DNA of 64,000 bases from Pseudomonadota bacterium (GTDB lineage Bacteria; Pseudomonadota; Gammaproteobacteria; CALCKW01): positions 1 through 64,000 of the forward strand of contig JBCCUP010000012.1 in assembly GCA_039196715.1 (NCBI GenBank). The letters are read 5' to 3'. Made by a program: the position numbers and the translations under genes. Below the pieces are notes generated by a model. That model saw only the letters and a list, made by a program, of their open reading frames with translations. It was not told the DNA's origin and searched no databases. Each line of letters begins with the position of its first letter. Within the stretch, counting starts at the first letter, position 1. Of this stretch, positions 23,206 through 61,025 are shown in pieces.

Positions 23206-23748
23206 TCAGGCGCGGATGAGTTGCAGGAATTCCTGGCGGGTGTTCACGTCGCGGCGAAAACGGCCGAGCATGCACGAGGTGGTCATGGTCGAGTTCTGTT
23301 TCTGCACGCCGCGCATCATCATGCACATGTGCTGGGCCTCGATCACCACCGCGGCGCCCTGGCCATCGGTAACATCGAGCACGGCCGTCGCAATCTGCCG
23401 GGTCAGGTTCTCCTGAATCTGCAGGCGGCGGGCAAACATGTCGACGATGCGGGCGACTTTCGACAGGCCGATGACCTTGCCGGACGGTAAATACGCGACG
23501 TGCGCCTTGCCGATGAACGGCAAGAGGTGGTGCTCGCACAGCGAGTAGAGCTCGATGTTGCGCACGATGACCATCTCCTCGGAATCCGATTCGAACACCG
23601 CGTTGTTGAGGATGTCCTCGAGCGACTGCCCGTAGCCTTGAGTCAGAAACTGCAGCGCCTTCGCGGCCCGTTTCGGCGTGTCGAGCAGACCCTCGCGCGT
23701 CGGGTCCTCGCCGATGTCTCTGAGAATGGATTCGAAGTGCGCTTGCAT
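23206..23748 (-). CDS. folE: GTP cyclohydrolase I
   Basis: Enzyme converting GTP to dihydroneopterin triphosphate, the first step of folate synthesis. About 180 aa from ATG 23748. It carries the zinc site [10 protein letters not shown] (Cys and His) with the distal Cys in QHMCMMMRG, and the GTP-binding [20 protein letters not shown], so it is the zinc-dependent type IA enzyme. Convergent with the ABC exporter. Confidence 0.93.
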
Positions 23749-23975
23749 GCTGTGCCCCTGACGATCGCGCGCCATTCTAGCCCAAAGGCCGGCGTGGGCG
23801 CCGGTGTGTCGTACCGTGAGCCGTCGTCAGAGACACTGCCGCCGTTGGCCGAGGCACGCTATCTGCAGTGGCGATGCAAAGGCCTTTGCGCCGCGTCGCG
23901 AGGTCGTGTGCCCGCGTGTGCGTGCCGGCGAGGTGTTGGCCGGTCGCGCCGACCCCGACGACAGTGAGCAGATCG

Positions 23976-26447
23976 ATGGCGTTTTTTCACAGAGACAACC
24001 CCTGGCTTCCGCCGCTGGGCGCACTCGCAGCCGGGTGCCTCAGCGTGGTAATCGGTGTCACGCTCGTGCGTGGGCCGGCCGCGCCCGAAGCCGAGTCCGC
24101 GCCGCGCACGGGCGCGCTGCTCACCGGGGTGGCCGAGTTTCAGACCCGCATCCGCTCGGTGCACAGCGGGCTGTGCGCCACACTCAGTATCATCAACCAG
24201 AACAACGGAAATCCGGTTGCGCAGCAGAGCTGTGCAACCAACTCGCTGCACCGCTGGACCGTGGAGCAGTTGCCCAATGGCGATGACCGTTACCGCATTC
24301 GGCGGCATTTCGATGGCAAGTGCCTGGAGGCTAATTCGGACAACACGGTTAGCCCGCGCGTCCACGTCTGGACATGCCACCAGGGCGACACGGCGCGACC
24401 AACGATCTCGGCCGACGCGCAACTGTGGAGGCTTGAAGCGCAAACTGGGTCCGACTACCGGATACGCTCGGTGTTGACCGGTGAAGCGCTGGTGGTACAA
24501 GGCGGCAGCTACAGCAACGGCGCGCTGCTTACGCTGCGAACAGCGAGCGGTTCCAGCGACGAGAGCTGGGCCTTTGATGCCCGCGTGAACACCGCGCCGG
24601 ACCTCGCGGTGCGCGGCCAGTGGGGACCGCTGTTCGGCTGGCCTTTCGTACCGGTTCACGTCGCCATGCTGCCCGACAACAAGCTACTGAGCTGGTCCTC
24701 GAACGAGCGCGACGAATTCAAGAACGTGGCGGTGCAGGGCACGCACAGCGCGGTCTACGACATCGAGACCGGCACGTTCAGCGAGACCTACGAGCAACCT
24801 CACGACATGTTCTGCGCGGGCACCTCGCTGTTGTCCGATGGCCGTGTGTTGGCCTCGGGCGGCAACGCAACAACCTACGCCGGCAGCGTGTTCGACCCGG
24901 ATTCCAGCACCTGGGAGTCGGGCGGCACGATGCGCCACGCACGTTGGTACGGCACACAGCTTACGCTGTCCGACGGCGACGCCTTCGCGACCTTTGCGCG
25001 TCGCGGCCAGGAGATACCAGAGCGCTACTCGCCGGCGAACTCGGTCTGGACCGAAGTTCCCGGAGCGAGCATGGTGCCGCTACGCAACGAACAGGACGCG
25101 ACCAACAGTCTCATCACTTCCGGTGTCGCCGACATGCAGTGGTACGCCTTTATGCACGTCGCGCCGGACGGCCGCGTCATCCAGACCGGGCCGACGCAGA
25201 CCCTGCACTGGTTCGACGCCAACGGGGTCGGCAGCGTCGAAGACACCGGCGTGCAGATGGCGCGCAACCGCCAGTTCGGCGCGGCGGTGATGTACCGGCC
25301 GGGCAAGATCCTGATCAGCGGTGGCTCAGACCCGATCCGCACCGATGTGACCAGTGAGTTCGGCAATCCACTTGGCGGCACCGAAACCGCCGTGACTGTT
25401 GATGTCTCGGGTGCGAGCCCGGTGGTGACCTCGGTCGAATCCATGCAATACGCGCGCGTCCAGCACAACGCGGTGGTGTTGCCCAACGGCGAAGTGCTGG
25501 TGGTGGGCGGCGACGCCTGGGGCAAGTTGTTCAGCGACCGCTTTGCCGTGCACGAGAGTGAAATCTGGAACCCTGACACCGAACGCTGGCGCACCGCCGA
25601 CAGTGTCAGCACCCCGCGCACCTACCACTCCTGGGCCATCCTGATGCAGGACGGCCGCGTCATGAGTGGTGGCGGTGGCCTCTGCGGCACCTGCGGCGTG
25701 AACCACCGCACGGCGCAGATCTTCACGCCGCCGTACCTGTACGCGGCCGACGGCAGTGCCGCGGTTCGGCCGGCACTCGGCACCGTGTCGGCCACGCTGC
25801 ATGCGGGCGAATCGCTCTACGCCAGCGTTAGCGCGACGGCGAGCAAGCCGAAATTCGCTCTGGTCCGGCTCTCCAGCGTCACCCACGCAATCAACACAGA
25901 CCAGCGTTGGATTCCGCTGACGCCGACCACGCTTGACCCCGGGCTGTTCCAGGTTGACCTGCCGGCCAACCCGAATGTGTTGATCCCGGGCAACTATTGG
26001 CTGTTCGCCTACGACGACGCGGGCACCCCGTCGATGGGCCACCTGGTGCAGATCGAAGCGGGCCAGCGTGGCAGCGACAGCCCGCCGGTGGTGCCCAGTG
26101 CGCTGTCGGTCGACATCGAGCCGGGCAGCGCCATCGACCTGACCCTGGCGTTGTTTGAGCCCGATGGCCAGAGCGTGCTGTTTTCCGCGGACGCCTTGCC
26201 GCTCGGGCTCACACTGGACCGGGCGACCGGGCGCATCTCCGGCGTGCCGAGCGACGCGATTCCGAGCACCCGTTTCTCGGTGTCGGACGGCCAGAACACG
26301 GCCGAGGGCGTGATCACCTGGCGCGTCCCCACGGCGGGCAAGGCCTCGTCGGGTGGCGGCGCACTCGGCCTGGCGTGGCTGGTGGCCAGTGGGCTGTGGT
26401 TTGGCGCCCGGCGACGCCGTGCAAACCCGTGGCCTGCTAGTTGCTGA
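23976..26447 (+). CDS. Secreted galactose-oxidase-type copper radical oxidase with ricin-type lectin domain
   Basis: About 823 aa from ATG 23976. N-terminal membrane/signal segment (residues ~10-30), then a ricin-type beta-trefoil lectin (~55-210), a kelch beta-propeller and a galactose-oxidase C-terminal domain. The copper-radical residues of galactose oxidase are all present: Cys280 in DMFCAG (thioether Cys), Tyr325 in ARWYGTQLTLSDG, Tyr550-His551 in RTYHSWAILMQDGR, and His637 in THAINTDQRWIPLT; GGGGLCGTC is also conserved. The enzyme would oxidise primary alcohols or aldehydes with O2, giving peroxide. The tail SGGGALGLAWLVASGLWF then ARRRR is a GlyGly-CTERM-like sorting signal, suggesting rhombosortase processing. 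It overlaps the next gene by 7 bases if that gene starts at TTG 26441. Confidence 0.82.
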   Translation: MAFFHRDNPWLPPLGALAAGCLSVVIGVTLVRGPAAPEAESAPRTGALLTGVAEFQTRIRSVHSGLCATLSIINQNNGNPVAQQSCATNSLHRWTVEQLPNGDDRYRIRRHFDGKCLEANSDNTVSPRVHVWTCHQGDTARPTISADAQLWRLEAQTGSDYRIRSVLTGEALVVQGGSYSNGALLTLRTASGSSDESWAFDARVNTAPDLAVRGQWGPLFGWPFVPVHVAMLPDNKLLSWSSNERDEFKNVAVQGTHSAVYDIETGTFSETYEQPHDMFCAGTSLLSDGRVLASGGNATTYAGSVFDPDSSTWESGGTMRHARWYGTQLTLSDGDAFATFARRGQEIPERYSPANSVWTEVPGASMVPLRNEQDATNSLITSGVADMQWYAFMHVAPDGRVIQTGPTQTLHWFDANGVGSVEDTGVQMARNRQFGAAVMYRPGKILISGGSDPIRTDVTSEFGNPLGGTETAVTVDVSGASPVVTSVESMQYARVQHNAVVLPNGEVLVVGGDAWGKLFSDRFAVHESEIWNPDTERWRTADSVSTPRTYHSWAILMQDGRVMSGGGGLCGTCGVNHRTAQIFTPPYLYAADGSAAVRPALGTVSATLHAGESLYASVSATASKPKFALVRLSSVTHAINTDQRWIPLTPTTLDPGLFQVDLPANPNVLIPGNYWLFAYDDAGTPSMGHLVQIEAGQRGSDSPPVVPSALSVDIEPGSAIDLTLALFEPDGQSVLFSADALPLGLTLDRATGRISGVPSDAIPSTRFSVSDGQNTAEGVITWRVPTAGKASSGGGALGLAWLVASGLWFGARRRRANPWPASC

Positions 26448-28366
26448 TACCTGATCGTGCCCGTGCAAACAGCGCGGGCCCTTCTCCCGGGATCCGTGCT
26501 GTGGCGCTCGACACCACCGACAACTCCAACACCGTGGCCGTGGCACTCGACGCCAGGCCGGCCGACGCCGAGCGGCAGGGTTCGCCGCGTCGGCAACCGG
26601 CTGCCGAGGCAATGGCGGCGTTGGCCGACTGGTCTGCCTGGCTGGCTGGCCTGCTCGGGCCGCGCGTGTCGATCTCGGTGTTTGCGTTCGCAGCCGACAG
26701 CCCGGTGCGGCTTGACGGCGCCGAGGCGCAGCCGGCGGTTAGCGACGCGGTGTCGCGTGCGGTCACCCGGGCACACGCCGAGGGCGTGTCGGTGGAACAC
26801 CGCCTGACGGGGGATTCGGCCACCGTGCTTGCAGTGCCCGCGCGAGACCGCAGGGGCACACCGCTGGTGATCGGGTGCGTGCTGCCCGGTGCGACGCCCG
26901 CCGCCACCGACACCACGCAGCGCGTGATCACGCACGCGATCCACTGGCTCGACACCCGCGACTCGGCCGTCGAGCGCGCGGACGGCGCTGGCCTGTTGGG
27001 TCGCCTCGATCGCGCACCGAACGTCACGCACGCCGCCCAGATCCTGGTCGACACGCTGGCGAGCGCCGCGTCCGAGCAGGGTGCACCACCCCGCGTGGCC
27101 TATTTTTCCCGGGCCGGTGCGCACGGCCTGCGCCTGCGGGCGATCAGCGCGCAGGCCAGCCCGGTCGACACCTCGGCGTGGTGTCACAGTTGCCGCCGCG
27201 TCGCGCGCGAGTACCTCTACCAGAGCGCGAAGACCGTCGGCATGCTCGACGCGCCGGCACCCGCTGCCTCGGACGGCCTGGTCCGCACACAGCACCGCCG
27301 ACACGCTGCCGAATTCGGGTGTCACCGCGTCATGACGGTTGGCATGCCATCACGCGCGGCCGAGGGCTGCGCCGTGCTGATCGCCGAGTTTCCGGAGGAC
27401 GGCGGGTGCGCGGACATCACCTTCCGCAGCTGGTCGGACACCGTGCGCCGCTGCGGTGCCACGCTGGCCTGGCACGAGCGGGCCGCGCGCGGTGTCAGCG
27501 CGCGTGCGCTGCGCCTGTTGTCCCCGGCCTTTGTCTGGCATCGGGTGCGCAGCAACGCGCTGCGCAATGCCCTGGTGCTGGCGGCCCTGGTCGGGTTGAT
27601 GGCTGCGGCCACGGTGAGCGTACCGGGCACGGTCCGTGCGCACGCCGAGGTGATCGGTGCGGCGCCCCGCGTGGTCGGCGCGCCGCGCGACGGCTACCTT
27701 GAATCGGTCCACGTGCGCCCCGGCGACCGGGTGTCGGCGGGGCAGGTGCTGGCGGTGTTGAACACCGACGACCTGCAGGCCGAGCGTGCCAAATGGCAAG
27801 CCGAGTCCGAGCGCATCAACGCGCTGTACCACGCGGCGCTGGCCAGCAGGGACCGGCGCGAGATCAGCGTGCAACGCGCCCGTCAGGACGAGGTGCGGGC
27901 CGAGCGCGACGCGGTGGATACGCAGATCGCGCGCAGCACCTTGCGGGCGCAACGCGACGGCGTGGTGGCCCGGGGCGACCTCACCGAGCGCCTCGGTGGC
28001 GCGGTGGCCGTCGGTGAAACCCTGTTCGAAACCGTGCTGGCCGGTCCCAAGCGGATCCGGCTCTACGTGCGTGACACCGATATCGCGCGGCTCGACGGCG
28101 CGGTAACCGGTCGCATGGTCCTCGCGGCTCAGCCCGGCGAGGAACACCGTGTGGTCACGCAACTGATCAAGCCGGTGGCGACCACGCACGCCAACGACAC
28201 GGTCTTCATCGTCGAGGCCGATTCGGATTCCCTGCCCGCCGATGTGTTGCCGGGCATGACCGGCTACGCCGCACTCGACGCGGCCGAGATGTCGCTGTTG
28301 GCCGCGTGGACACTGGATGCGCGGCGTGCGCTCCACTTGCTGTTCTGGCGGCTGGGGGTGCTCTGA
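26441..28366 (+). CDS. HlyD-type membrane-fusion protein with GAF-like N-terminal region
   Basis: About 641 aa if the TTG at 26441 is used; GTG 26501 or ATG 26612 are possible, so the start is uncertain. Residues 1 to ~360 form a soluble region with the look of a GAF-like sensor; one transmembrane helix follows (NALVLAALVGLMAAATVSV, ~374-392), then a lipoyl/HlyD barrel (GYLESVHVRPGDRVSAGQVL), a short coiled coil, and the second half-barrel STLRAQRDGVVARGDL. The topology puts the GAF-like part in the cytoplasm and HlyD in the periplasm. Its stop overlaps the ATG of the M50 gene (TGATG). Known relatives accompany M50-HlyD proteins. Confidence 0.7.
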   Translation: MLIPDRARANSAGPSPGIRAVALDTTDNSNTVAVALDARPADAERQGSPRRQPAAEAMAALADWSAWLAGLLGPRVSISVFAFAADSPVRLDGAEAQPAVSDAVSRAVTRAHAEGVSVEHRLTGDSATVLAVPARDRRGTPLVIGCVLPGATPAATDTTQRVITHAIHWLDTRDSAVERADGAGLLGRLDRAPNVTHAAQILVDTLASAASEQGAPPRVAYFSRAGAHGLRLRAISAQASPVDTSAWCHSCRRVAREYLYQSAKTVGMLDAPAPAASDGLVRTQHRRHAAEFGCHRVMTVGMPSRAAEGCAVLIAEFPEDGGCADITFRSWSDTVRRCGATLAWHERAARGVSARALRLLSPAFVWHRVRSNALRNALVLAALVGLMAAATVSVPGTVRAHAEVIGAAPRVVGAPRDGYLESVHVRPGDRVSAGQVLAVLNTDDLQAERAKWQAESERINALYHAALASRDRREISVQRARQDEVRAERDAVDTQIARSTLRAQRDGVVARGDLTERLGGAVAVGETLFETVLAGPKRIRLYVRDTDIARLDGAVTGRMVLAAQPGEEHRVVTQLIKPVATTHANDTVFIVEADSDSLPADVLPGMTGYAALDAAEMSLLAAWTLDARRALHLLFWRLGVL

Positions 28367-30489
28367 TGTCGGCTGCGGAGCGCGCACACACAACGCCGTG
28401 GCAGGTCCTGAGCACCTGGCGTGCAGACGCGCTGGACGCCGACGGCGGCCACGGTGTGCTGCTGCATGACCCGGTCGCGGACCGACGGGTCCGCCTCTCG
28501 GCCGAAGCTGCGCACGTGGTGTCGGTGTTCCGCACGGCGCGCACCGCGGACGCCGGTCACACCGAGATCTCGCGACGCGGTGTCGAGCTGGCACCTGCCG
28601 CCTACCGTGCGCTGCTCGATCAGCTGGCGCGCTCCGGCGTGTTGACGCCGGTGGCGGCCGACAGCGCCGACACCGCCAACCAGTCCGAATCACGCGCGCG
28701 CACACGCCGTGTCAAGCGTGTATTGAACCCCTTCGTGCTGCGCTGGGATCTCGGCGACCCGACACCCGGCTTGCGCGCGCTCGCTCCGGTGTTCTCCGTG
28801 GTTGACAGTGCCGCGGGCCGTCTCGGACTGCTGTTGGCGGTGCTGAGCCTGCCGTGGCTGCTGTGGCGAAACAGCGAGACCATGGCGCAGTACCTCGCTC
28901 AGTCGCTCACGCCCTGGCAGTTCATGGCGGCGGTGTGCGTCGTTTGGCCGGTGATGAAAAGCCTTCACGAGGCCGCGCACGCCGGCGTGCTGATCAGCCG
29001 GGGTGGGCGCGTGAACCGCTGCGGCGTCCACTTTCTCTTCTTCATGCCGGTGCCCTTTGTCGATGCGAGCGATGCCTGGCGACTGCCGCGCCGCCGCGAC
29101 CGCATCGCGGTGTCCGCTGCAGGCGTCATCGCCGAACTCGCGGTCGCGGCCGTCTGCCTGTGGCTGTGGCAATCGGTCGCCGACGGTGTCTTCCGCACGG
29201 GCCTGGCGGCGGCCGTGGTCGTCGCCTGCACGGCGAGCCTGTTCGTCAACGCCAACCCGTTGATGAAATTCGACGGCTACCACATCCTGCAGGACCTGCT
29301 CGGCACCACCAATTTGCAGGCCGAGTCCACACAGACCCTGCGTCGCCTTGCCTGGCGTGCGCTCGGCGCGCAAGGCCCTGCTGCGTCGCTGGACAGACGC
29401 TGGCGGCTGTACGCCGTCTATGGCGTCGCTGCGCTGGCGTTCAAGGTGGCGGTGCTCCTGGGCATCGCGCTCTGGTTTGCCGTTGACTTCCCCTTGGTCG
29501 GGCTTGCGCTGGCTTCGCTGTTGCTCTGCTCAGCCGGTGTCTTGCCGCTGCTCGGGTTTGCGCGCATGACGGTCCGCGACCGGGCGACCTTGTTTCCGTC
29601 CGCCCCCCGCCAACTGCGTGCAGTCGTGACGGTGCTCGCAGGGGCTATCCTCGTGTTCGTCGTGCCGTTCCCCCACTACGCCAGCGCCGAGGGGGTGAGT
29701 ACGGTGCCGCGCGAGGCCCAGCTCGTCAGCACCACCCACGGCGAACTGACCCGGCTGGTCGAAGACGGCACACGCGTCGAAGCGGGGCAGCCTGTTGCCC
29801 GACAGACGGCCTTTGATACGCAGCGCGAACACGACCGCCAGGCGCTCGCGCTGGCACGGCGCACACAAGAGAAACACGGCTTGCAGTTTCACCCCGACGC
29901 GTCTCGGAGGGCGACCAGTGCACAGTTGCAGCCGGGCATCGCAGCCGCGCAAGACAAGCTCGCGCGCTTGTCGGCGCGGTTGTCTGAGCAGGTGATCCGC
30001 GCCGGTTCGCCCGGGCTTGTGTCTTTCGCGCCCGAAGGCAGCGCCCCTGGCCAGTTTGTCGGCCGGGGCCAGGTCATCGGCACGGTGGTCGCCGACGACG
30101 CCTTGATGGCGCGTGTCATGTTGCGTCAGGAGACCGCCGAGTCGGTGCTCGACGGCCTGCGCGCGGTGTCGGTCTGGGTGCCGGGTCGCACGCCACGCGT
30201 GTTTCAAGCCTCGGTTGGCTCCGTCTCGCCGGTCGCCGTGTCCGACGGATTCGCCCACGCCTTCACCCGCAACGGCGGCGGTGAGATCGCCACCGACGCC
30301 GAGAACCGCAGCGTCGAGACAGGCGCAGCCTACGTCGACATGCGTTTGCAACTGCACGACCACGCCGCCGTGGGCGCGTTGCGCGGTCAACGCGTGGTCG
30401 TGCGCTACACCCTGGCCCCGAGCACCGTGGCCAGCCGAATCGTGAGCGCGTTGCGCCACACCTTCTTTTCAACTCAGTTGAATGGGTAG
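28366..30489 (+). CDS. M50 (site-2-protease-like) membrane metalloprotease fused to a lipoyl/HlyD domain
   Basis: About 707 aa from ATG 28366. Residues ~10-95 resemble a PqqD-like peptide-binding winged domain (VLLHDPVADRRVRLSAEAAH). The membrane part contains the zinc motif HEAAH (201-205) and the distal ligand region NANPLMKFDGYH (Asp303), both intact, as in peptidase M50. After several more helices, residues ~445-700 carry a lipoyl hairpin (TTHGELTRLVEDGTRVEAGQ) and a barrel typical of HlyD adaptors. Relatives are annotated as peptide zinc metalloprotease/efflux proteins. I infer it recognises, cleaves or moves a peptide or surface protein encoded in the same operon. Confidence 0.78.
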   Translation: MSAAERAHTTPWQVLSTWRADALDADGGHGVLLHDPVADRRVRLSAEAAHVVSVFRTARTADAGHTEISRRGVELAPAAYRALLDQLARSGVLTPVAADSADTANQSESRARTRRVKRVLNPFVLRWDLGDPTPGLRALAPVFSVVDSAAGRLGLLLAVLSLPWLLWRNSETMAQYLAQSLTPWQFMAAVCVVWPVMKSLHEAAHAGVLISRGGRVNRCGVHFLFFMPVPFVDASDAWRLPRRRDRIAVSAAGVIAELAVAAVCLWLWQSVADGVFRTGLAAAVVVACTASLFVNANPLMKFDGYHILQDLLGTTNLQAESTQTLRRLAWRALGAQGPAASLDRRWRLYAVYGVAALAFKVAVLLGIALWFAVDFPLVGLALASLLLCSAGVLPLLGFARMTVRDRATLFPSAPRQLRAVVTVLAGAILVFVVPFPHYASAEGVSTVPREAQLVSTTHGELTRLVEDGTRVEAGQPVARQTAFDTQREHDRQALALARRTQEKHGLQFHPDASRRATSAQLQPGIAAAQDKLARLSARLSEQVIRAGSPGLVSFAPEGSAPGQFVGRGQVIGTVVADDALMARVMLRQETAESVLDGLRAVSVWVPGRTPRVFQASVGSVSPVAVSDGFAHAFTRNGGGEIATDAENRSVETGAAYVDMRLQLHDHAAVGALRGQRVVVRYTLAPSTVASRIVSALRHTFFSTQLNG

Positions 30490-30492
30490 TCC

Positions 30493-31326
30493 ATGAAAAT
30501 CCCCCACACACTTCGACCCCTCACCGTGCCTGTATTGGGCGGCCTGTCACTGCTGCTGTCGACGTCGGTCACGGCCAACGAGGCGGTCGACACACCGCTG
30601 GATTGCCTGGTGGAACCGAGCATGATCGTCGACCTGAGCGCACCCGAACCGGGTCAGCTCGACGCGGTATTCGTGCGCCGTAACGACGTGGTCAAGCAGG
30701 GCGATTTCATCGCCAAGCTCGAGAGCAGCCTCGAAATCGCGGCCGTCAAGCTCGCTGAGCACAGTGTCAACTCGCAGGCCCAGCTTGAACTGCGGCAGCA
30801 GAGTGTCGAGTACGGTCAGCGCACGCTGGAGCGCAATCGCACGCTGATGAAGACCTCCTCGGTGTCGCGCCAGCAGTTCGACAAAGTGGAAACCGAGTAC
30901 GAGATTTCGCGTCTGCAGCTCAAGGACCAGCGGGAGCGCGCGGGGCGCTACCAGCTCGAGCTCGACCGGGCGCGTGCAGCGCTGGCGCGGCGATCGATTC
31001 AAACGCCGATCAGCGGGGTGATCTCCGAGCGCTACAAGAACGAAGGCGAGTACCTCGAGGGTCAACCGATCGTGCAGATCGCACGGCTCGACCCGCTGCA
31101 CGTGAGTGTCATTGCCCCCTTGAGCTACCTGCCGCGGGTGCGCGAGGGCGCGGAGGTGCCGGTGCGCATCCTGGCCGGTGACGCCGACCTCGACGAGACC
31201 GCGCGCGTGACCTCGATCGACCGGGTTGCGGACGCCGCGAGCAACACCTTCGGTGTCCAGCTGACCCTCGCGAACGCCGACCTGCGCATCCCGGGCGGGG
31301 TGCGCTGCCAAGTGTCCTTCGACTGA
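30493..31326 (+). CDS. Periplasmic HlyD/RND-type adaptor
   Basis: About 277 aa with a Sec signal peptide (VLGGLSLLLSTSVTANEAVD). Two lipoyl half-motifs (GQLDAVFVRRNDVVKQGDFI and RRSIQTPISGVISERYKNEG) flank a long coiled-coil hairpin (~85-160, many Gln, Glu and Arg). No lipobox Cys at the cleavage site is seen. It lies 3 bases after the M50 gene and 13 before the surface-protein gene, and would bridge the inner-membrane components to an outer-membrane channel not found in this window. Confidence 0.8.
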   Translation: MKIPHTLRPLTVPVLGGLSLLLSTSVTANEAVDTPLDCLVEPSMIVDLSAPEPGQLDAVFVRRNDVVKQGDFIAKLESSLEIAAVKLAEHSVNSQAQLELRQQSVEYGQRTLERNRTLMKTSSVSRQQFDKVETEYEISRLQLKDQRERAGRYQLELDRARAALARRSIQTPISGVISERYKNEGEYLEGQPIVQIARLDPLHVSVIAPLSYLPRVREGAEVPVRILAGDADLDETARVTSIDRVADAASNTFGVQLTLANADLRIPGGVRCQVSFD

Positions 31327-31339
31327 CTGGAGGACGCCC

Positions 31340-34300
31340 GTGGCTGTGTCGCGCGTTGATGTCGAAGTGCTCGAAACCCGTCTGCTGTACTCGGCAGACC
31401 TGCTGCCGTTCGGCGACGACGTGGCCGACGACAACGACGTCGCGCGCGTGTTTCCCGCCGCAGTGGGTGATGGTTCCACTGTCGAACAAAGCTACACGGT
31501 CGCCGCCAACGGTGTGATCGTCGTATCCGAATTTCAGGCCGAGTCGGGGCTGGATCGCTGGGTGTTGCTCGACGCGCCGACGCAGGGCACCGTCGAGCTC
31601 AATGGTAGCGCGGTCAATATCGGGGACACCGTCACCGGTACCCAGGTGCAAAACGGCGAAGTGAGCTATGTCTCGACTGTCGGTGGAGGCACAGCCACCA
31701 GCGATTCTGTCCGTTTTCAGCAAGCCGACGGTACAGGTACGTACGACAACTACGTACGGTGGAACCTCCGTATCAACCATGCGCCGAACGTGCAGGACGA
31801 TGTCGTGCTGCTGACCAGTGGCCCCGCGTCGACGGCAACGTCCACGCTGCTGTCCAACGACAGTGATCAGAATGGCGACACCCTGGCCATCACGGGGTTC
31901 TCGTCGCCGTCATCCGGTGACCTAGAGCTGTCGTCGGCCAACACGCTGTCGTACAACTACACAGCATCATCAGACCCGTTTTCGACCAATCTCCAGGACA
32001 CTGCGACTGTCGATGTCCGCGAGATTGACGCGAGCTACGTGTTCGCGTTGCCGCTGATCACCAGTGAGCAGGAATTGGTCAACAACATCACCCCGTCTGA
32101 CGGGTCGATGACGTTGAGTAACAACGGCGAAGGTGCCTCGTTTACCTCGTCAAACAACGGCCCGGACTACGGGGCGTTTGACTTTCCTGACGCATTTCGT
32201 GTCGATGTCGAGTTCTTGCCGACAGACATCGATGACGGCGACAACGACCTGATTTGGAGCGTCGGCGCAGCTGCTGACCCGGGCTCTATCACGATGTACA
32301 TCGACCAGCTCGACGACAACAAGAACTACCTGATCGCCCACATGGGCAACAGCGGCGATCTGCCCGATACCAAGGCCGAGCTGACAGGCGGACCGCATTT
32401 GTTTTTCGAGTTGAAAAGCTCGTTCGCTGAGAACGTCTGGCACTCCGCGAGCCTGGTTGTCGACACCGCCGGAATGGCGCACCTCTATGTTGACGGCAAC
32501 CTGGAGCGTTCGCTGGATGTGAGTGGTACGGATTTCCAGGGCGGGGACTTTCGGGTTGGCAATGACATCTACAACCCGAATATCTTCACCTACTTTACGC
32601 GCCCGTTTGACGGTCAGATCCGCAACTTGTACGTGCGCGACCTGGCTGGCCATGGAACGACCGATCCGGTCGTCAACACGCTCACCTCGACGATATTCTT
32701 CAGACACTATGAAGACAGTGCGTCGGGAGCATCGGGCGACAGCTACGTGGTTGACCCCGACCTGATCAGCGTCGACTCGAGCGTGCTCGGGACGGCACCG
32801 CTCTCCGACAACGACACCTTCACCACCAGCCCCACGGTGACGCACACCTGGTCACTGGTGACCGATGGCGCTGTCGGTACGGCCACCGTCAACGGCGATG
32901 GGTCGTTCTCGTATATCCAGAATACCGCAACCAACACCAACGACAGTTTTACCTACCAGCTCAGTTCGGCGTACCGCGCGACGGCCGGTGGCGCGGTACT
33001 CTGGACCGACACCTCGACCGCCACGGTGGCGCTCGACGCCAGTGGTGTGGTGATTGGCTCGCGCCCGGTGGCGGTCGACGACGCGATCACGGTGGACGAA
33101 GGCGATTCGGCCCTACTGACGGCGACGCTGAACAACAGTCTGTTGTCGAATGACACCGACGGCGACGGCACCTTGTCCGTGGTGTCGAACACCAACCCCA
33201 GTTTCGGCACGCTCACGCTCAATGCCAACGGCACGTTCTCGTACACACACGACGGCTCGGAGAACTTCTCGGACTCGTTCACCTACGTCCTGCAGGACGC
33301 AGACGGTGACCAGGCGCTCGCGCCCGGCACCGTCAACATCACCATCAACCCGCTCAACGAGAACGCGCCGAACGCCGTGACCGAAACCCTGAGCGTGGCC
33401 TACGCCGGCACGCAAACCGTGTTGGACGGCGGCGCGACGAGCGTGCTTGCCAATGACTCGGACGTCGATACCGGCGACACCCTGCGCGCAGAGCTTGTCC
33501 TCCAGGCGACCAAGGGCACCGTGGTGTTGAACGGCAACGGCACCTTCGTTTACACGCACGACGGCGCACTCGGCGGGGGCACGGACCAGTTTACCTACCG
33601 CGTGCTCGATGCGGCCGACAACGCGACCTGGATGACGGTCACGATCAACATCACGGCAAATGGGGAGCCGGTCGGGCAGGCGGACGAGATCTCGGTCGAC
33701 GAGGGCGGCACGCAGACTGAGCTTGATATGGTATTCGCCGGGACGCCTCCGCCGGGCGCTGGCACAAGCGTGCTGGAGAACGACTCGGACCCGGACGGCG
33801 ACACCATCACCGCGGTGTTGCACACGGCGCCGGCACACGGCACGCTGACGCTGAACGCCAACGGCACCTTCAGCTACACGCACGACGGCAGTGAAAATTT
33901 CAGCGACGCGTTCCGCTACTCGGCCACGGACCAACACGGGTTGGCAGAGTCCTCTGAAACCGTGGTGTCGATCACCATCAACCCGGTCAACGACAACGAC
34001 CCGATCGCCAACGACGACCTGATCCGGGTCGACCACGGCGCTTCCCGTGCGGTGCTGGTCGGTGGCGTGACCTCGGTGCTTGCGAACGACAGCGATCTCG
34101 ACACCGGTGACACGCTGATTGCCGAATTGGTGCAGGGGCCAGGCAAGGGCACGCTGACGCTCAACGCCGACGGGACCTTCCAGTACCAGCACGATGGGGT
34201 CAGCGAAGGCAACGATTTTTTCCGCTACCAGGCGCGTGACGCGGCTGGCAACACCACCATCGCCCGGGTCGGTATTCAGGTCGCACCGCCGGACAACCCA

Positions 34301-35299
34301 CCGCAGTTTCTCGGCGGTGACCAGCAGGTCCTGGTCAACGCAGGTGTGCCGGATCAGGCCGACCTTGGCGCGCAATTCAGCGACGAAGGGCCAATGACCT
34401 TCGAGATCGACAAGGGCGCTGAGCCGTTTTTCAGCATTGACCCCAACACCGGCGAGCTGACGATCAACGCCACGGCGTCGGACGTGGGCAACCACCGTTT
34501 TTCGGTCAAGGTCACCGATACCGCTGATCAGTCGATCACCAAGGTGTACCGCATCGTGGTGCTAGAGAGTGACACGGGTGGCACCGAGCCGGGAGCGCCC
34601 GGGTCTTCGCCAGACACTCCACCCGACACCGGTGGCGGCGATACGACCGACCCGGACGGTGAAACGTCCAACGCCCCTGGTGGCGAGGGGGAGGGTGAGG
34701 ACGCGGCGGACACCGGTGAGGGCGGTGACACCGCATTGCCGGAGGATGCCGCCGGTGAGGGCGCGTTGAACACCTTGGCCGAGGGCTTCGCGGCGCTCTG
34801 GGGTGGCGGCGCCGAGGTCGGCGCCGTCGCAACCGGAGCCACCGCGGACGCGGTCAGTGCGGTCGACGTCAATGTGTTGACTTTTGAAGCGGGCGCCGGA
34901 ACCGACAGGGCAATCGGCTTCGCCGGGTCGCCCGTCAGTGTCAGTTCGATCGCGGGCCTCGCGGGCCTGTCGCTCAACAACATCCTCGATAACACGGACA
35001 ACCCCAGTACGGGCGCGCTGGTGGACTGGCGTCGCATCGGCCCAAGCTCGGTAAACGGTGTGGAGTCACAACTCGAAGTCACGCCGGCCGTGACCACGGC
35101 GACCGCCGCCACCGGGTTCTCGCTTGGCTACCTGCTCTGGCTGGCGCGCAGCGGCTTCCTGCTCAGCACAGTGCTCTCGGCGCTGCCGGCGTGGCGCAAC
35201 ATTGACCCCCTGCCGGTGTTGAACAGCGTGGCCGGGTCCCAGGACGGACGCGATGAAGACGACGACAAGTCGTTGAACGAATTGACCGAAGGAAAGTAA
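31340..35299 (+). CDS. Large multi-domain surface protein with LEPR-XLL-like leader
   Basis: About 1,319 aa from GTG 31340. The N-terminus VDVEVLETRLLYSADLLPFG is a close variant of the LEPR-XLL motif found at the start of very long exported proteins; there is no Sec signal peptide. Residues ~235-440 look like a LamG/concanavalin-type domain. About four VCBS/tandem-95 repeats follow (~574-990), each with an SVLANDSD-type strand and LTLNANGTFSYTHDG, then a cadherin-like domain (~990-1075), an acidic Gly/Pro linker and a C-terminal hydrophobic segment (SLGYLLWLARSGFLLSTVLS) ending near ALPAWRNIDPLPVL. Asp-rich repeats suggest calcium binding. It is probably an adhesin or surface scaffold exported by the upstream M50/HlyD proteins. 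Confidence 0.78.
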   Translation: MAVSRVDVEVLETRLLYSADLLPFGDDVADDNDVARVFPAAVGDGSTVEQSYTVAANGVIVVSEFQAESGLDRWVLLDAPTQGTVELNGSAVNIGDTVTGTQVQNGEVSYVSTVGGGTATSDSVRFQQADGTGTYDNYVRWNLRINHAPNVQDDVVLLTSGPASTATSTLLSNDSDQNGDTLAITGFSSPSSGDLELSSANTLSYNYTASSDPFSTNLQDTATVDVREIDASYVFALPLITSEQELVNNITPSDGSMTLSNNGEGASFTSSNNGPDYGAFDFPDAFRVDVEFLPTDIDDGDNDLIWSVGAAADPGSITMYIDQLDDNKNYLIAHMGNSGDLPDTKAELTGGPHLFFELKSSFAENVWHSASLVVDTAGMAHLYVDGNLERSLDVSGTDFQGGDFRVGNDIYNPNIFTYFTRPFDGQIRNLYVRDLAGHGTTDPVVNTLTSTIFFRHYEDSASGASGDSYVVDPDLISVDSSVLGTAPLSDNDTFTTSPTVTHTWSLVTDGAVGTATVNGDGSFSYIQNTATNTNDSFTYQLSSAYRATAGGAVLWTDTSTATVALDASGVVIGSRPVAVDDAITVDEGDSALLTATLNNSLLSNDTDGDGTLSVVSNTNPSFGTLTLNANGTFSYTHDGSENFSDSFTYVLQDADGDQALAPGTVNITINPLNENAPNAVTETLSVAYAGTQTVLDGGATSVLANDSDVDTGDTLRAELVLQATKGTVVLNGNGTFVYTHDGALGGGTDQFTYRVLDAADNATWMTVTINITANGEPVGQADEISVDEGGTQTELDMVFAGTPPPGAGTSVLENDSDPDGDTITAVLHTAPAHGTLTLNANGTFSYTHDGSENFSDAFRYSATDQHGLAESSETVVSITINPVNDNDPIANDDLIRVDHGASRAVLVGGVTSVLANDSDLDTGDTLIAELVQGPGKGTLTLNADGTFQYQHDGVSEGNDFFRYQARDAAGNTTIARVGIQVAPPDNPPQFLGGDQQVLVNAGVPDQADLGAQFSDEGPMTFEIDKGAEPFFSIDPNTGELTINATASDVGNHRFSVKVTDTADQSITKVYRIVVLESDTGGTEPGAPGSSPDTPPDTGGGDTTDPDGETSNAPGGEGEGEDAADTGEGGDTALPEDAAGEGALNTLAEGFAALWGGGAEVGAVATGATADAVSAVDVNVLTFEAGAGTDRAIGFAGSPVSVSSIAGLAGLSLNNILDNTDNPSTGALVDWRRIGPSSVNGVESQLEVTPAVTTATAATGFSLGYLLWLARSGFLLSTVLSALPAWRNIDPLPVLNSVAGSQDGRDEDDDKSLNELTEGK

Positions 35300-35302
35300 C
35301 CC

Positions 35303-37780
35303 ATGCGATTTCTCCGACTCAGCACGCGCTTCTACATCGCCCTGGCCCTGTCGTCGATCGTGACCTGCATGCTGGTTGTCGGGCTCGCCTTCAAGGTGTT
35401 GCCGGATCGCGAGGCGGTGCAAAGCCGGTCGATGAACACGCTCGCCGACTCGGTGGCGACCTCGGTGTCGTTGTTGGTGTCCTCGTCGCGCTACGGCGAT
35501 ATCCGCAACGTGGTTTCAGCCATGCTCGAGAGTGAAGAGGCCCCGCCGCGCGGTGTGTTGGTGCGCCAGGGCGACCGCACGGTGCTTTACGAACCGCCCG
35601 GCTTTGCGCCGACGCAGACCGCGTATCTGAGCCGACCGGTGTACTCCGGTCCGACCCTCTGGGGCAGTGTTGAGATCGAATACCAGCCACACGCGCTCGA
35701 TGTCGGGGGCTACTTCACCGTGAGCTACACCTACTTCCAGGTCGCAGCGATCTCGCTGTCGTGCTTCATGGTGTTCTACTTCTTCCTCGGTCGCGTGCTG
35801 AAGCAGCTCGACCCGAGTCAGGCGATCCCGGACCGCGTGCAGGACGCGCTCGACAAGCTCGTCGAGTGCCTGATGCTGATCGACAAGGGGGGACAGATCC
35901 GCCTCGTCAACCGCAGCATGGAGCAGGTGGCGCAATCCGAGTCGCAGAAGCTGCTCGGGCGCTCCTACACCGCAATACCGTGGCTGTCCGGTGACGGTGA
36001 GCCGGTGGCAGCGAAAGACCTGCCGTGGCACCCCGAACGCGGCTTGCAATCCGGTGAGCGCCTCTGCATTGCAGCGGCCGACGGCAGCCTCAATTCCTAC
36101 ATCGTCAACTGCGCGGCCATCGTCTCGGACACCGGCAGCACCGACGGCACGCTCGTCAGCCTCAACGACGTCACCGAGATCGAGCGCATCCAGGGTGAGC
36201 TGATCGAGCAGACCGAGAGAGCCGAGATCGCGAACCAGGCGAAGTCGGATTTCCTCTCCAACATGAGCCACGAAATCCGCACGCCGCTCACGGCGGTGCT
36301 GGGTTTCGCCGATGTCATGAAGTCTTCGGCGTTCTCGAACGACGCGCGGTACCAGCAGTACCTCGACACCATCAGCCGCAGCGGCAACCACTTGCTGACG
36401 CTGATCAACGACATCCTCGACCTGTCCAAGGTCGAGGCCGGCAAGCTCGAAGTCGAGCTGCTGCCGATCGACCCCTGCCTGCTGCTGATCGATGTCGAAG
36501 ACCTGCTGCGCGACCGTGCTGACAGCAAATCGGTCGGCCTGACCGCATCGATCGAAGGGGCGATTCCGGCCGAGGTGTCGTCCGATCCGGTGCGCTTCAA
36601 GCAGATCATCACCAACCTGGTGGGCAACGCCATCAAGTTCACCGAGGAGGGTGGCGTGCGCCTGGTGGCCCGCTACGACGAGGCGCTGCAGACGCTCTCG
36701 GTGAGTGTCCACGACACCGGCATCGGCATGACACCCGAGCAGGCGGGCAACGTCTTTCAGGAGTTTACCCAGGCCGACACCTCGACCACGCGCCGCTTCG
36801 GCGGCACGGGGCTCGGCCTCTCGATCTCGCGCAAACTCGCCAACGCACTCGGCGGCGACATCGAGGTCTCGAGCGTCATGGGCGAGGGCTCGACCTTTAC
36901 CGTCTCCGTGCGGGCCGAGGCGCTGTCCGACGAGCGCATCACCGACCTCGACACCGTGCGGCACGCGCGCCAGCTCGCCGCGGCCCAGGCGTCGATGGTG
37001 CCGGTGTTCGCCGGCCAGCCGGTGCTCGTGGCCGACGACGCCGAGGAAAACCGCGTGCTCCTGACCGTGCTGCTCGAGGAGCGGGGCTTGACGGTTCACA
37101 CCGTCGAGAATGGCCAATTGGCGGTCGAGGCGATAGCGGAGGGTGACTACCAGATTGTTCTCAGTGACCTGAACATGCCGGTGCTCGACGGCTACGGCCT
37201 CGTGGACACGGTGCGCCGCGACGGCTGTGAGTTGCCGATCGTCGCGCTGACCGCCGACGCGATGAAGGGCATGCGCGAGAAGGTCGTGGCAGCCGGTTTT
37301 ACCGACTACCTGACCAAACCGGTCGAACTGCCAGCCCTCAACACCGTGTTGCAGCGCTACCTCGGTGAGGCGGAGTTCGTCCAGGCCGCCGAGCCCGAGG
37401 CACCGGCGGCGACAGGCGAGGGCGACGGCCTTGGTCTTTTGGAGGAGGCCGCTGAGGCCCCGACCGTCGATGTCTGTGCCTTGAGCACCAAAAATGAACG
37501 CATTCGCAGCATTGCGGAAAAATTCGTTGCAGAACATCAAGCAACAGTCGATAGCTTGACAACACTGCTGGATGCAGCCGACCGCGACGCGGCGCGCCAA
37601 CTGGCGCACCGCATCAAGGGCACATCCGGCTCGATGGGCTTTATGAAGATTTCGGAGATCGCCGCCGAGATGGAGCAGCGTTTGCTCGCTGACGACCTCG
37701 CGGGTGCGATCGACGTGTTGCCGACGCTTCAGGGCATTCGACCCGTTATGACAACCGAGGCGCAAGACAGAGCAGCATGA
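35303..37780 (+). CDS. Hybrid sensor histidine kinase (HisKA-HATPase-REC-Hpt)
   Basis: About 825 aa. Two transmembrane helices (~11-33 and ~141-165) enclose a ~105-residue periplasmic sensor; a PAS-like domain follows (~180-300). Phospho-acceptor His323 lies in [11 protein letters not shown], the ATPase boxes include [14 protein letters not shown] and [13 protein letters not shown], the receiver Asp622 is in [11 protein letters not shown] with lysine in YLTKP, and the C-terminal Hpt has His769 in [13 protein letters not shown]. All relay residues are intact. It starts 3 bases after the surface-protein gene and overlaps the next gene by 4 bases, so the partner should be the downstream receiver-GGDEF-EAL protein. 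Confidence 0.88.
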
Positions 37781-39597
37781 ACCCCGAGCGGCCCGGCGCA
37801 CGCTTGCCGACCACGAGCAAGCCGTCGATCGACCAACGCGAAGCGATCAACGACGACCTGATCGAAAGCTTCGTCGCGAACGCGAAAATCGTCATCGTCG
37901 ACGACGACCCGTTGTTGATTGAGATCCTCGTTGCCTACCTCGAGGACGCGGGTTACCAGAACATCGTCGCCGTGAACGATTCCCGCGAGGCACACGACAC
38001 CATCGCGGGCCACAAGCCCGACTGCGTGCTGCTCGACCTCAACATGCCGCACGTGACCGGCTTCGACGTGCTCAAGGGGGTGCGAAACACGCCGGAGCTG
38101 CGGCACACGCCTGTGGTGGTACTGACGTCGTCGACCGACGCCCCCAACCGCCTGCGGGCGCTCGAGTACGGCGCGACCGATTTTCTTGCCAAGCCGGTCG
38201 ACGAGAGCGAATTCGTGCTGCGGCTGCGAAACATCCTGATCGCGCGTGCCTTTCAGCACCAGTTGGCCTACATCGACGGGGTGACGGGGCTACCCAACAA
38301 ACGCTTGTTCCAGGAGAAGGTCGACCGCGCGCTGGCCAAGCACCTCGAACAGAAAAAACGCTGTGCGATGCTGCACATCGACCTGACCCGCTTCCGCCGC
38401 GTCAACGACGCCCACGGACCGGCCTGCGGTGACAAGTTGCTGGCCGATTTTGCCTCACGGCTCTACATGCTCTCGCGCGACCACGACGTGGTCGGCCACG
38501 AGGTGCCCGACGCCTACCGCACCAACATCTGCCGATTCGGCAGCGACACTTTCTGCCTGCTGGTCACGGACATCACGTCGCCCGATGACATCGCTGCCGT
38601 GGCCCGTCGCCTGATCGACGCCAACAACGCCCAGCCCTTCCAGGTGGCAGGCGACAACCACTACCAGCGTTGTACCGTCGGCATTGCGGTGTTTCCGGAG
38701 GACGGCCTCAACGGCCAGGACCTGCTGGGCAAAGCCGAGATCGCGACCTACCACGCGAAATCGACGCCGGGTGACCATGCAATCGGTTTCTATTCGCACG
38801 AGATGAACGCGTCCACGCGTGAAAAGCTCCAGATCGAAGACGGTCTGAGCCACGCGATCGAGCGCAACGAGCTCTACCTCGCCTACCAGCCCAAGGTGTG
38901 CGCCAAGACGCAGAAGACCGTCGGCGCAGAAGCCCTGATGCGCTGGAACCACCCGAAGATGGGTTCGATTCCGCCGGGCAAGTTCATCGAAGTGGCCGAG
39001 GAAACCGGGTCGATCATCGAGATCGGCGCCTGGGCGATCGAGCGCGTCTGTGAATTTCTCGCGCAGATCGAGAGCCGTGTACCGGGGCTGCAGATCGCGG
39101 TCAACATGTCGATCAAGCAGCTCCACAGCAAAAATTTCGTCGAGTCCCTGCACGACATCGTGGAACGCCACGGCACCGACCCAAGCCGCATCAAGCTCGA
39201 GATCACCGAGAGCCTGATGATGGACAGCCTCGAGGACAGCCAGCGGTTGCTGAACCGGCTCAAGGAGCTCGGCTTCGCGTTGTCGATAGACGACTTTGGC
39301 ACAGGTTACTCCTCGCTCCAGTACCTGCGCGCGCTGCCGTTCGACGAGATCAAGATCGACAGGGCCTTCATCACCGAACTGACCGACGAGGACAGCGTGT
39401 CGCCGGTCATGAACGCGATCGCGTCCCTGTCGCGTGATTTCGATCTGACGCTGGTGGCCGAGGGCGTCGAGACCAAGACCCAACTCGACCACGTCAACCG
39501 CATCGGCTGCGATATCGTGCAGGGGTATTTCTTCAGCCGCCCGTTGACCGGCGCGGACTTCGTCGAGTACTGCGAAAACCCGATGCCACCGCGTTGA
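37777..39597 (+). CDS. Response regulator with GGDEF-EAL (probable c-di-GMP phosphodiesterase)
   Basis: About 606 aa. Receiver domain ~35-155 with Asp87 in LLDLNMP and lysine in FLAKPVD. The GGDEF domain (~160-335) has FGSDTF at 254-259 where RxGGDEF should be, so cyclase activity is probably lost. The EAL domain (~350-600) keeps EALMRW (385-390), [29 protein letters not shown] and AEGVET, so c-di-GMP hydrolysis is expected. It likely receives phosphate from the adjacent hybrid kinase and tunes c-di-GMP for the surface protein system. Confidence 0.88.
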
Positions 39598-57762: not shown

Positions 57763-58812
57763 TCAGCTCTCGAGGCAGCTGAGGTGGTTGTCAAAAGCGA
57801 GGTCGAACCGCCGTTTGCGCCCGCCGTGCACAACCAGGCGACCGAGGCCGTCGCTCAACACGGTGCCCACCGGGCTGACAGCGACGCCGGACACGTCGGT
57901 GTGCATGTTCACGGCGATCCGCTCGCCGAGCCGCAGCACCGAGGCGCTCGGTGCGCTCGTGGCAATCACGTCGCCGTGCCCCTGCCAGCGGACATCACCC
58001 AGGTACCCTTGCAGCGTGTGGTGCAGGCCGTGCTGCCAACTCGCCGCTTGCAGCGGGCCACCAATGGGGTTCTCGAGCCACACCAGCGCCGTGTCGACAC
58101 CGGCGGCGGCACCTGCAGGCACTTGCGCGGCGACAACCGCGCGCCCGGTGTTGTCGAGATCCAGGTGTCGCAAACTCAAGCCTGGTTCGGCCACGTGCTG
58201 GCTGATACGTTCGCCTGTCAACGACAGGCGAACGAGCGAGCTGGCGAAATGAGCTGCGTTTGTCACCTCGCGTCGCCGCACGGGGTGCGTTTGCAACCCG
58301 CCGTTGCAGACGACGAGATGGCGGTGGCGAGGGTCGAAGGCGATGGCGTGTGGCCCGATACCGTGTGTGTCCAGTGCACCGCTGAACCGCGGCTCTCGGG
58401 CGAAGGTATCCACCACCAAAACCGCGCCACGGCTTGTGTTCGTGTGTTGCGCGCTGCAGTAGAGAAACTGCGGGTTCTCGGCAAACACCGCGTGTCCGGT
58501 GAAAAAGTATCCGGCTGGCGGTCTGAGCAGGGTGTGGTGGTCAGTGCGTCGATTCCAGAGCAGCAACCAGTCGCCCGGGCGGCGCGCCGGGGCGGCGCAC
58601 CACGGCGTCTCCGGCGACACCGCCACGTGGTGACCGCGTCCCGGCAACGGGATCAGCCGCAGGGTGCCGTCGCGCCAGTCGATTTCAGCGAGGTGGTGCG
58701 AGCCCGTGCGGTCTCGCGCGCAGGAATAGACCCGAAACGCGGCGGTCTGCTGGGCCGGCGCCAGCGTAGGGAGCGCCAGTATGGGCGCTGCCAACAGGGC
58801 ACGGCGTCGCAT
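57763..58812 (-). CDS. DUF1513 beta-propeller-like protein
   Basis: About 349 aa with a signal peptide (RRRALLAAPILALPTLAPAQ). Repeated short beta segments such as GRGHHVAVSPETPWCAAPAR and IGPHAIAFDPRHRHLVVCNG fit the DUF1513 family, usually the last gene of imelysin-containing iron clusters. Its function is unknown. It abuts the second imelysin gene directly (stop to start, no spacer) on the minus strand. Confidence 0.78.
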   Translation of the reverse strand: MRRRALLAAPILALPTLAPAQQTAAFRVYSCARDRTGSHHLAEIDWRDGTLRLIPLPGRGHHVAVSPETPWCAAPARRPGDWLLLWNRRTDHHTLLRPPAGYFFTGHAVFAENPQFLYCSAQHTNTSRGAVLVVDTFAREPRFSGALDTHGIGPHAIAFDPRHRHLVVCNGGLQTHPVRRREVTNAAHFASSLVRLSLTGERISQHVAEPGLSLRHLDLDNTGRAVVAAQVPAGAAAGVDTALVWLENPIGGPLQAASWQHGLHHTLQGYLGDVRWQGHGDVIATSAPSASVLRLGERIAVNMHTDVSGVAVSPVGTVLSDGLGRLVVHGGRKRRFDLAFDNHLSCLES

Positions 58813-61022: not shown

Positions 61023-61025
61023 GGA

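What the first reader, a model, noticed from the sequence alone, without database searches (positions are those of the whole stretch)
23976..26447. Bacterial galactose-oxidase-type enzyme with lectin domain and GlyGly-CTERM-like tail
All copper-radical residues are present (Cys280, Tyr325, Tyr550, His551, His637), an N-terminal ricin-type lectin is fused, and the C-terminus has a Gly-run, one helix and ARRRR, the GlyGly-CTERM layout handled by rhombosortase. Lectin targeting plus surface sorting of an alcohol-oxidising, peroxide-making enzyme beside a surface-protein exporter is unusual.
Basis: partly seen in the sequence, partly recalled or inferred. Interest (0 to 1): 0.62.

Follow-up and report, generated by a model that had tools for sequence, protein, structure and literature searches.

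The report
Surface-sorted bacterial copper radical oxidase
A sugar-binding, hydrogen-peroxide-making copper enzyme of a bacterium probably carries a tail that anchors it on the cell surface, and its closest relatives in other bacteria are fused to a two-haem protein, hinting at a previously undescribed enzyme partnership.

Summary
Confirmed: window 23976-26447 (+) encodes an 823-residue AA5 copper radical oxidase with all five cofactor/copper residues (Cys280, Tyr325, Tyr550, His551, His637), an N-terminal ricin-type domain and a Gly-run/helix/RRRR tail. The tail alone misses the GlyGly-CTERM cut-off (9.8 vs 15.5 bits). However, the genome has a bona fide rhombosortase (135 vs 84 bits) head-to-head with T2SS gspG-N. 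All three AA5 paralogues here carry such a tail, and the equivalent ricin-AA5 protein of a sister species passes the model (19.3 bits). So a rhombosortase/T2SS surface enzyme is the best reading; processing is inferred. It lacks the Trp290/Arg330 pair that marks galactose 6-oxidases, so galactose is an unlikely substrate. The neighbouring exporter is not kept beside the relatives. New beyond the finding: in all six closest AA5 loci found outside the genus the oxidase is fused to (one broken gene: directly followed by) a propeller/di-haem module, with a MauG-type di-haem gene alongside; a sister species adds two tailed fusions. In this genome the pieces are split, and a stand-alone propeller/di-haem protein also carries the tail. 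A haem partner that activates or matures the Cys-Tyr radical, or uses its peroxide, is plausible and testable.

The parts
23976..26447 (+). AA5 copper radical oxidase gene, 823 aa (P0001)
   Evidence: translation; Pfam; PDB phmmer; AlphaFold/Foldseek
24006..24068 (+). N-terminal hydrophobic segment, residues 11-31 (signal peptide or signal anchor; long h-region)
   Evidence: hydropathy maximum at residues 13-31; helix 16-29 in model
24141..24569 (+). Ricin-type beta-trefoil lectin domain, residues 56-198
   Evidence: PF14200 E 4.4e-25, PF00652 E 5e-12
24615..25766 (+). Seven-bladed kelch propeller with catalytic site, residues 214-597
24813..24815 (+). Cys280 (GalOx Cys228, thioether partner)
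   Evidence: alignment
24948..24950 (+). Tyr325 (GalOx Tyr272, radical tyrosine), in motif RWYGT
   Evidence: alignment
25623..25628 (+). Tyr550-His551 (GalOx Tyr495-His496)
   Evidence: alignment
25767..26054 (+). GO-like early-set domain, residues 598-693; carries His637 (25884-25886; GalOx His581)
   Evidence: PF09118 E 5e-19; alignment
26085..26327 (+). He_PIG Ig-like domain, residues 704-784
   Evidence: PF05345 E 1.9e-8
26337..26420 (+). GlyGly-CTERM-like tail, residues 788-815: Gly/Ser run, hydrophobic helix 797-814, RRRR

Best explanation
The gene encodes an exported AA5 copper radical oxidase that should build a Cys280-Tyr325 thioether radical cofactor and oxidise a primary alcohol or aldehyde with O2, releasing H2O2 (known for the family; inferred here). 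The substrate is probably not free galactose. The ricin-type domain would hold it on a glycan (inferred). The tail is a rhombosortase signal: after Sec export it would hold the protein in the inner membrane, rhombosortase would cut in the Gly run and swap the helix for a lipid-like group, and the T2SS would place the enzyme on the cell surface, as shown for VesB of Vibrio cholerae (inferred by homology). It most likely acts with c-type di-haem proteins: the closest AA5 enzymes outside the genus are fused to (one broken gene: followed by) a propeller/di-haem module and sit beside a MauG-type di-haem gene. In this genome the modules are separate proteins, and the propeller/di-haem one carries the same tail. 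The haem partner could activate or mature the radical cofactor, or consume its H2O2 (hypothesis).
For: Catalytic residues intact and conserved in the family alignment. Fold of AA5: Foldseek E 8.4e-44 to a bacterial galactose oxidase, TM 0.88 (target-normalised) to a fungal AA5 alcohol oxidase. Rhombosortase 135.3 bits vs 84 cut-off, divergent from T2SS gspG-H-I-K-L-M-N. The rhombosortase/gspG/gspH pairing recurs in all four genomes of the genus and in a Granulosicoccaceae genome. GspD and GspE above cut-off. Own-genome tails on three AA5 paralogues, a propeller/di-haem protein and an LRR protein. Tails over the TIGR03501 cut-off: the sister-species ricin-AA5 protein 19.3, the AA5 relative in G001 17.3, own C37 18.4. 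AA5-di-haem arrangement in six of six closest loci outside the genus, plus two tailed fusions in sister species G002. Adjacent di-haem proteins carry Tyr at the MauG Tyr294 position where it could be read.
Against: This tail by itself scores below the TIGR03501 cut-off. Ricin-AA5 proteins of the genus share an unusually long N-terminal hydrophobic segment that could stay as a membrane anchor. No di-haem gene lies next to this copy; the nearest in the window is a DHOR protein about 33 kb away in an iron-uptake-type cluster. MauG-type genes are common in the genus (nine CCP_MauG matches in this genome), also in G003, which has no AA5 gene. No expression or activity data.
Confidence: 0.62

Rival explanations
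1. The tail is only a C-terminal membrane anchor (or is cleaved by another protease), and the enzyme stays at the inner membrane or periplasm, not on the surface.
For: Tail below the TIGR03501 cut-off; long N-terminal hydrophobic segment, so the protein could be anchored at both ends.
Against: True rhombosortase in the genome next to T2SS genes; tails on several unrelated proteins of the genome; sister-species equivalent passes the model; He_PIG/ricin/PPC decorations are typical of exported proteins.
Confidence: 0.2
2. It is a GlxA-like morphogenesis enzyme that modifies the cell's own glycan at the surface rather than a foreign polysaccharide.
For: Streptomyces GlxA is a surface copper radical oxidase in glycan deposition and needs a haem peroxidase, DtpA, for maturation under copper limitation (PMC4736821, PMC11022532).
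Against: Weak hit only to the GlxA equivalog model (150 vs 800 bits); no cellulose-synthase-like gene among the neighbours examined.
Confidence: 0.25
3. The enzyme belongs functionally to the HlyD/M50/adhesin export cluster that starts just downstream (26441-39597).
For: Same strand, about 50 bp apart at most, no terminator-like site found.
Against: The related ricin-AA5 genes in G001 and G002 have other neighbours; the exporter has its own candidate cargo (cadherin-repeat protein 31340-35299).
Confidence: 0.08
4. It is a non-catalytic kelch/lectin protein (pseudo-enzyme) used for adhesion.
For: Second-shell residues and substrate pocket differ strongly from characterised enzymes.
Against: All five cofactor residues are kept across the whole family, while the pocket varies.
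Confidence: 0.07

Closest known systems
Galactose oxidase of Fusarium graminearum (AA5_2, 1GOF) and of Pseudarthrobacter siccitolerans (9G43/9G8H)
   Same: Kelch propeller plus early-set domain; Cys, Tyr, Tyr, His, His all aligned; about 30% identity
   Different: No Trp290/Arg330 pair; RWY motif at the cross-link; clade-specific QWYAFMH loop; ricin instead of CBM32-like lectin domain; He_PIG and GlyGly-CTERM-like tail
GlxA of Streptomyces lividans with its haem partner DtpA
   Same: Bacterial surface copper radical oxidase; precedent for dependence on a haem peroxidase (PMC4736821)
   Different: Distant sequence (150 bits vs 800 cut-off); DtpA is a DyP peroxidase, whereas the partners here are c-type di-haem proteins, often covalently fused
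Fungal AlcOx-peroxidase pairs (Colletotrichum)
   Same: AA5 oxidase activated by a dedicated haem peroxidase by one-electron oxidation (PMC9770985)
   Different: Two separate genes with a class II peroxidase; here a propeller/di-haem module on the same chain in relatives
VesB and other GlyGly-CTERM proteins with rhombosortase/T2SS (Vibrio cholerae)
   Same: Tripartite tail, rhombosortase and T2SS in the genome
   Different: Cargo is a copper radical oxidase rather than a protease or nuclease; rhombosortase sits head-to-head with gspG here
MauG of the methylamine dehydrogenase system
   Same: Relatives' neighbour genes are di-haem CCP/MauG proteins with Tyr at the MauG Tyr294 position
   Different: No methylamine dehydrogenase target; putative target is an AA5 oxidase; function untested

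Membership tests
AA5 copper radical oxidase | Cys/Tyr cross-link pair, axial Tyr and two His copper ligands | tested here: met
   C280, Y325, Y550, H551, H637
AA5 copper radical oxidase | Kelch propeller followed by GO-like early-set domain | tested here: met
   Pfam; Foldseek
AA5 copper radical oxidase | Formed Cys-Tyr thioether and Cu-dependent oxidase activity | not testable with these tools
   needs recombinant protein
Galactose 6-oxidase (EC 1.1.3.9) | Trp290/Arg330 pair | tested here: not met
   Arg343 and Asp386 at these alignment positions, and no clade member has the pair; local alignment is gapped there
Streptomyces GlxA equivalog (NF052501) | Score above curated cut-off 800 | tested here: not met
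   150.4 bits
AA5_1 / AA5_2 subfamily | Placement in the CAZy subfamily tree | not tested
   no CAZy reference set at hand; PMC11267884 says there are AA5 enzymes, including bacterial ones, that fall outside both
Ricin-type lectin | Beta-trefoil domain | tested here: met
   PF14200 and PF00652; low model confidence there
Ricin-type lectin | Sugar binding (QxW motifs) | tested here: inconclusive
   HRW, QLW, ESW: one canonical QxW (sequence)
GlyGly-CTERM (TIGR03501) | Curated model score of at least 15.5 bits | tested here: not met
   9.8 bits
GlyGly-CTERM (TIGR03501) | C-terminal Gly motif without Cys, TM helix, basic cluster | tested here: met
   sequence; helix 797-814
GlyGly-CTERM (TIGR03501) | Homology running through a trusted example (biocuration rule of PMC3237569) | tested here: met
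   ricin-AA5 protein of G002:C2, about 41-42% identical over its length, scores 19.3
GlyGly-CTERM (TIGR03501) | Rhombosortase (TIGR03902) in the genome | tested here: met
   135.3 bits, cut-off 84
GlyGly-CTERM (TIGR03501) | Cleavage in the Gly motif and lipid-like modification | not testable with these tools
   needs mass spectrometry
MauG-type di-haem enzyme (neighbour genes of relatives, not the window gene) | Two CXXCH and Tyr ligand of the six-coordinate haem | tested here: met
   L012, L013, L059, L134, L136 and C114 proteins; the Tyr stretch of the L135 protein was not captured by the motif search

The most novel reading that the evidence does not exclude
A clade of gammaproteobacterial AA5 oxidases works as a copper-radical/di-haem machine: a c-type propeller/di-haem module, on the same chain or co-sorted to the cell surface by rhombosortase and T2SS, together with a MauG-type enzyme, generates or repairs the Cys-Tyr radical (or takes over its H2O2). 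This would extend MauG-like maturation of protein-derived cofactors to copper radical oxidases.
Probability: 0.3. Interest if true: 0.78.

Novelty: new variant of a known kind. Interest (0 to 1): 0.55.

Why it matters
No AA5 oxidase was among the GlyGly-CTERM cargo described in the papers read here, and no paper in the library mentions copper radical oxidases with di-haem c-type partners (zero hits). In vitro these oxidases lose activity without a haem peroxidase, usually horseradish peroxidase; fungi and Streptomyces use dedicated peroxidases. A natural fusion to a di-haem module would make the bacterial activation question directly testable and could give a self-activating oxidase for biocatalysis.

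Tried and rejected
TIGR03501 search at E<=0.001 found nothing, controls included; a 22-position model cannot reach that, so it was repeated at E<=10. Exporter link: rejected on synteny. C114 di-haem gene as the direct partner of AA5 paralogue C26/C114: weakened, because an opposite-strand gene lies between and another gene, C4, is closer to the partner family. Propeller/di-haem module as AA5-exclusive: rejected, since two genomes of another family carry it in 1272- and 1658-aa proteins without an AA5 match. C37 structure model: mean pLDDT 52, not used. Promoter and terminator scans: nothing above shuffles. Papers on the Pseudarthrobacter enzyme: none in the library.

Full report
1. What is there. 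The gene at 23976-26447 (+) starts with ATG and encodes 823 residues. From N to C: a hydrophobic segment (11-31), a ricin-type beta-trefoil (56-198), the AA5 kelch propeller and early-set domain (214-693), a He_PIG Ig domain (704-784), and a tail GKASSGGGALGLAWLVASGLWFGARRRR (788-815). Best solved relatives are galactose oxidases (9g8h, E 1.7e-90); Foldseek gives the same answer (E 8.4e-44; the Colletotrichum alcohol oxidase 5c86 is covered at TM 0.88). The model's lectin part is low-confidence.

2. What kind of AA5. Second-shell comparison: GalOx Phe194 and Phe464 are kept (F248, F519), but Trp290 and Arg330 are not (Arg343 and Asp386 at the aligned positions; the alignment is gapped there, but no clade member has the pair). 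Fong et al. [quoted passage not shown] The cross-link motif is RWYGT, and a loop QWYAFMH is shared by the clade. So the catalytic machinery is intact and the substrate is probably not galactose. The substrate is unknown.

3. The tail. On its own it scores 9.8 bits against TIGR03501 (cut-off 15.5) and below cut-off for MYXO-CTERM and LPXTG models. Four lines still make a rhombosortase signal the best reading. (a) The genome encodes a rhombosortase at 135.3 bits (cut-off 84; no control genome passes). (b) A tail model made from the genus finds the same tail at the C-termini of five proteins of this genome: the three AA5 paralogues (C12, C67, C26/C114, the last split by a contig gap), a propeller/di-haem/He_PIG protein (C37) and an LRR protein (C3). 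(c) The ricin-AA5 protein of sister species G002 (same architecture; 42% in the search, 41% in the alignment) has a tail at 19.3 bits, and the relative of paralogue C26 in G001 scores 17.3, both over the cut-off. Haft and Varghese used exactly this kind of through-alignment to promote low-scoring tails, and they require no Cys in the motif, which holds here (PMC3237569). (d) With the window tail left out of training it still outranks every one of 189 control C-termini except the C3 tail protein; some other tails of the set did not do as well in the same test. In V. cholerae, rhombosortase cleavage and a glycerophosphoethanolamine-containing group plus T2SS put VesB on the surface (PMC6219818). 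GspD, GspE and gspG-N are present here. Not shown: cleavage, modification, localisation. Caveat: the ricin-bearing AA5 proteins have a long N-terminal hydrophobic stretch (about 20 residues) that may be a signal anchor, unlike paralogue C26, whose N-terminus looks like an ordinary signal peptide by eye.

4. Neighbourhood. Upstream and divergent is folE (23206-23775). Downstream, on the same strand, come two HlyD-type adaptors with an M50/HlyD protein between them, a cadherin/Big_9-repeat protein, a hybrid histidine kinase and a GGDEF-EAL regulator. In G001 and G002 the related ricin-AA5 genes have none of these neighbours. The exporter is therefore scenery, as far as these data go.

5. Beyond the finding: di-haem partners. 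The closest AA5 proteins outside the genus are parts of very large proteins. In Marinagarivorans (2845 aa), Marinobacter salicampi (2461), G047 (2510), G408 (3186) and G526 (1747) the AA5 domain is followed on the same chain by a YVTN-type propeller and a two-CXXCH domain that hits CCP_MauG, mostly with RoxA-like_Cyt-c; phmmer of the Marinobacter module finds hydrazine synthase beta and gamma chains and cytochrome c peroxidases. In G446 the AA5 gene is broken in two pieces and the di-haem ORF follows directly. In all six loci a second di-haem gene of the CCP_MauG family is adjacent, same strand in five, divergent in G526. In the five of these proteins where the motif could be read, and in the C114 protein of this genome, Tyr stands where MauG has its Tyr294 haem ligand. 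Sister species G002 has two further AA5-di-haem fusions, both with GlyGly-CTERM-like tails. In the window's own genome the parts are separate: three tailed AA5 enzymes, a tailed propeller/di-haem protein (C37; 24-26% identical to the fused modules), and MauG-type genes, one of them about 1.6 kb beyond AA5 paralogue C26/C114 with an opposite-strand gene between. More distant AA5 proteins (L014-L018, G377/G378) show no such fusion in the sequence at hand.

6. Mechanism. AA5 oxidases fall into a resting form without the radical and are re-activated by haem peroxidases: CorPerox oxidises CorAlcOx by one electron (PMC9770985), and Streptomyces GlxA needs DtpA for maturation under copper limitation (PMC4736821). 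MauG itself completes a protein-derived cofactor (established knowledge). A di-haem partner for a Cys-Tyr radical enzyme is therefore mechanistically sensible, either as activator/maturase or as a consumer of H2O2. Shown here: fusion and adjacency. Inferred: function. Caution: MauG-type genes are common in this genus (nine CCP_MauG matches in G000), G003 has close relatives of the partner gene without any AA5, and the propeller/di-haem module also occurs in proteins without an AA5 match. Six loci in related gammaproteobacteria are not six independent events.

7. Known or new. AA5 enzymes, lectin-fused AA5 enzymes and GlyGly-CTERM sorting are each known, and a ricin-AA5 protein without a tail occurs elsewhere (G378). 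The combination with rhombosortase sorting, and the di-haem fusions, were not found in the literature searched. AA5 genes of this type are rare: 7 of 369 sampled genomes of the class.

Noticed in passing
L038:16727-17314 (+), G000:C54; also L078, L074, L077, L075: The rhombosortase gene lies divergent from T2SS gspG-gspH in all four genomes of the genus and in a Granulosicoccaceae genome; PMC3237569 could not tie rhombosortase to any T2SS subclass.
   Followed up: partly
L012:4347-12881, L013:4140-11522, L059:2026-9555, L134:2151-11708, L135:4440-9680, L060:3492-10028, L061:6967-13761: AA5 copper radical oxidase domains fused to a YVTN propeller/di-haem module, often with malectin, PA14 or F5/8C carbohydrate-binding domains.
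   Followed up: yes
L012:13338-14717, L013:12014-13267, L059:9758-11029, L134:11976-13460, L135:2472-3740, L136:7369-8628: MauG-type di-haem gene adjacent to each AA5-di-haem locus.
   Followed up: yes
L043:2695-5760 (G000:C37): Stand-alone propeller/di-haem/He_PIG protein with a tail over the GlyGly-CTERM cut-off (18.4 bits).
   Followed up: partly
L136:11152-17201 (G446): AA5 gene broken into two overlapping-frame pieces with the di-haem ORF next: frameshift, pseudogene or sequencing error.
   Followed up: no
window 26441-39597: HlyD, M50/HlyD (164.7 bits to the daptide protease model, cut-off 300), HlyD, then a Big_9/cadherin-repeat protein whose N-terminus reads VLETRLLYSADLLP, then a hybrid histidine kinase and a GGDEF-EAL regulator: looks like a dedicated exporter with cargo and regulation.
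   Followed up: partly
window 57763-62282 (-): Imelysin, DHOR di-haem oxidoreductase and DUF1513 genes in a row (an iron-uptake-type cluster).
   Followed up: no
L115:3390-7205, L116:2831-7804, L117:3777-7592: Same propeller/di-haem module in 1272- and 1658-aa proteins without an AA5 match; function unknown.
   Followed up: no
L137:3443-5437, L138:5392-7398: Short AA5 proteins (about 670 aa) without a tail in a 7-Mb-genome group related to Marinobacter; the one scanned (L137) has a ricin-type domain.
   Followed up: no
window 24006-24068; L033, L034 N-termini: Ricin-bearing AA5 proteins of the genus have a long N-terminal hydrophobic segment, while non-ricin paralogue C26 has an ordinary-looking signal peptide.
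   Followed up: no
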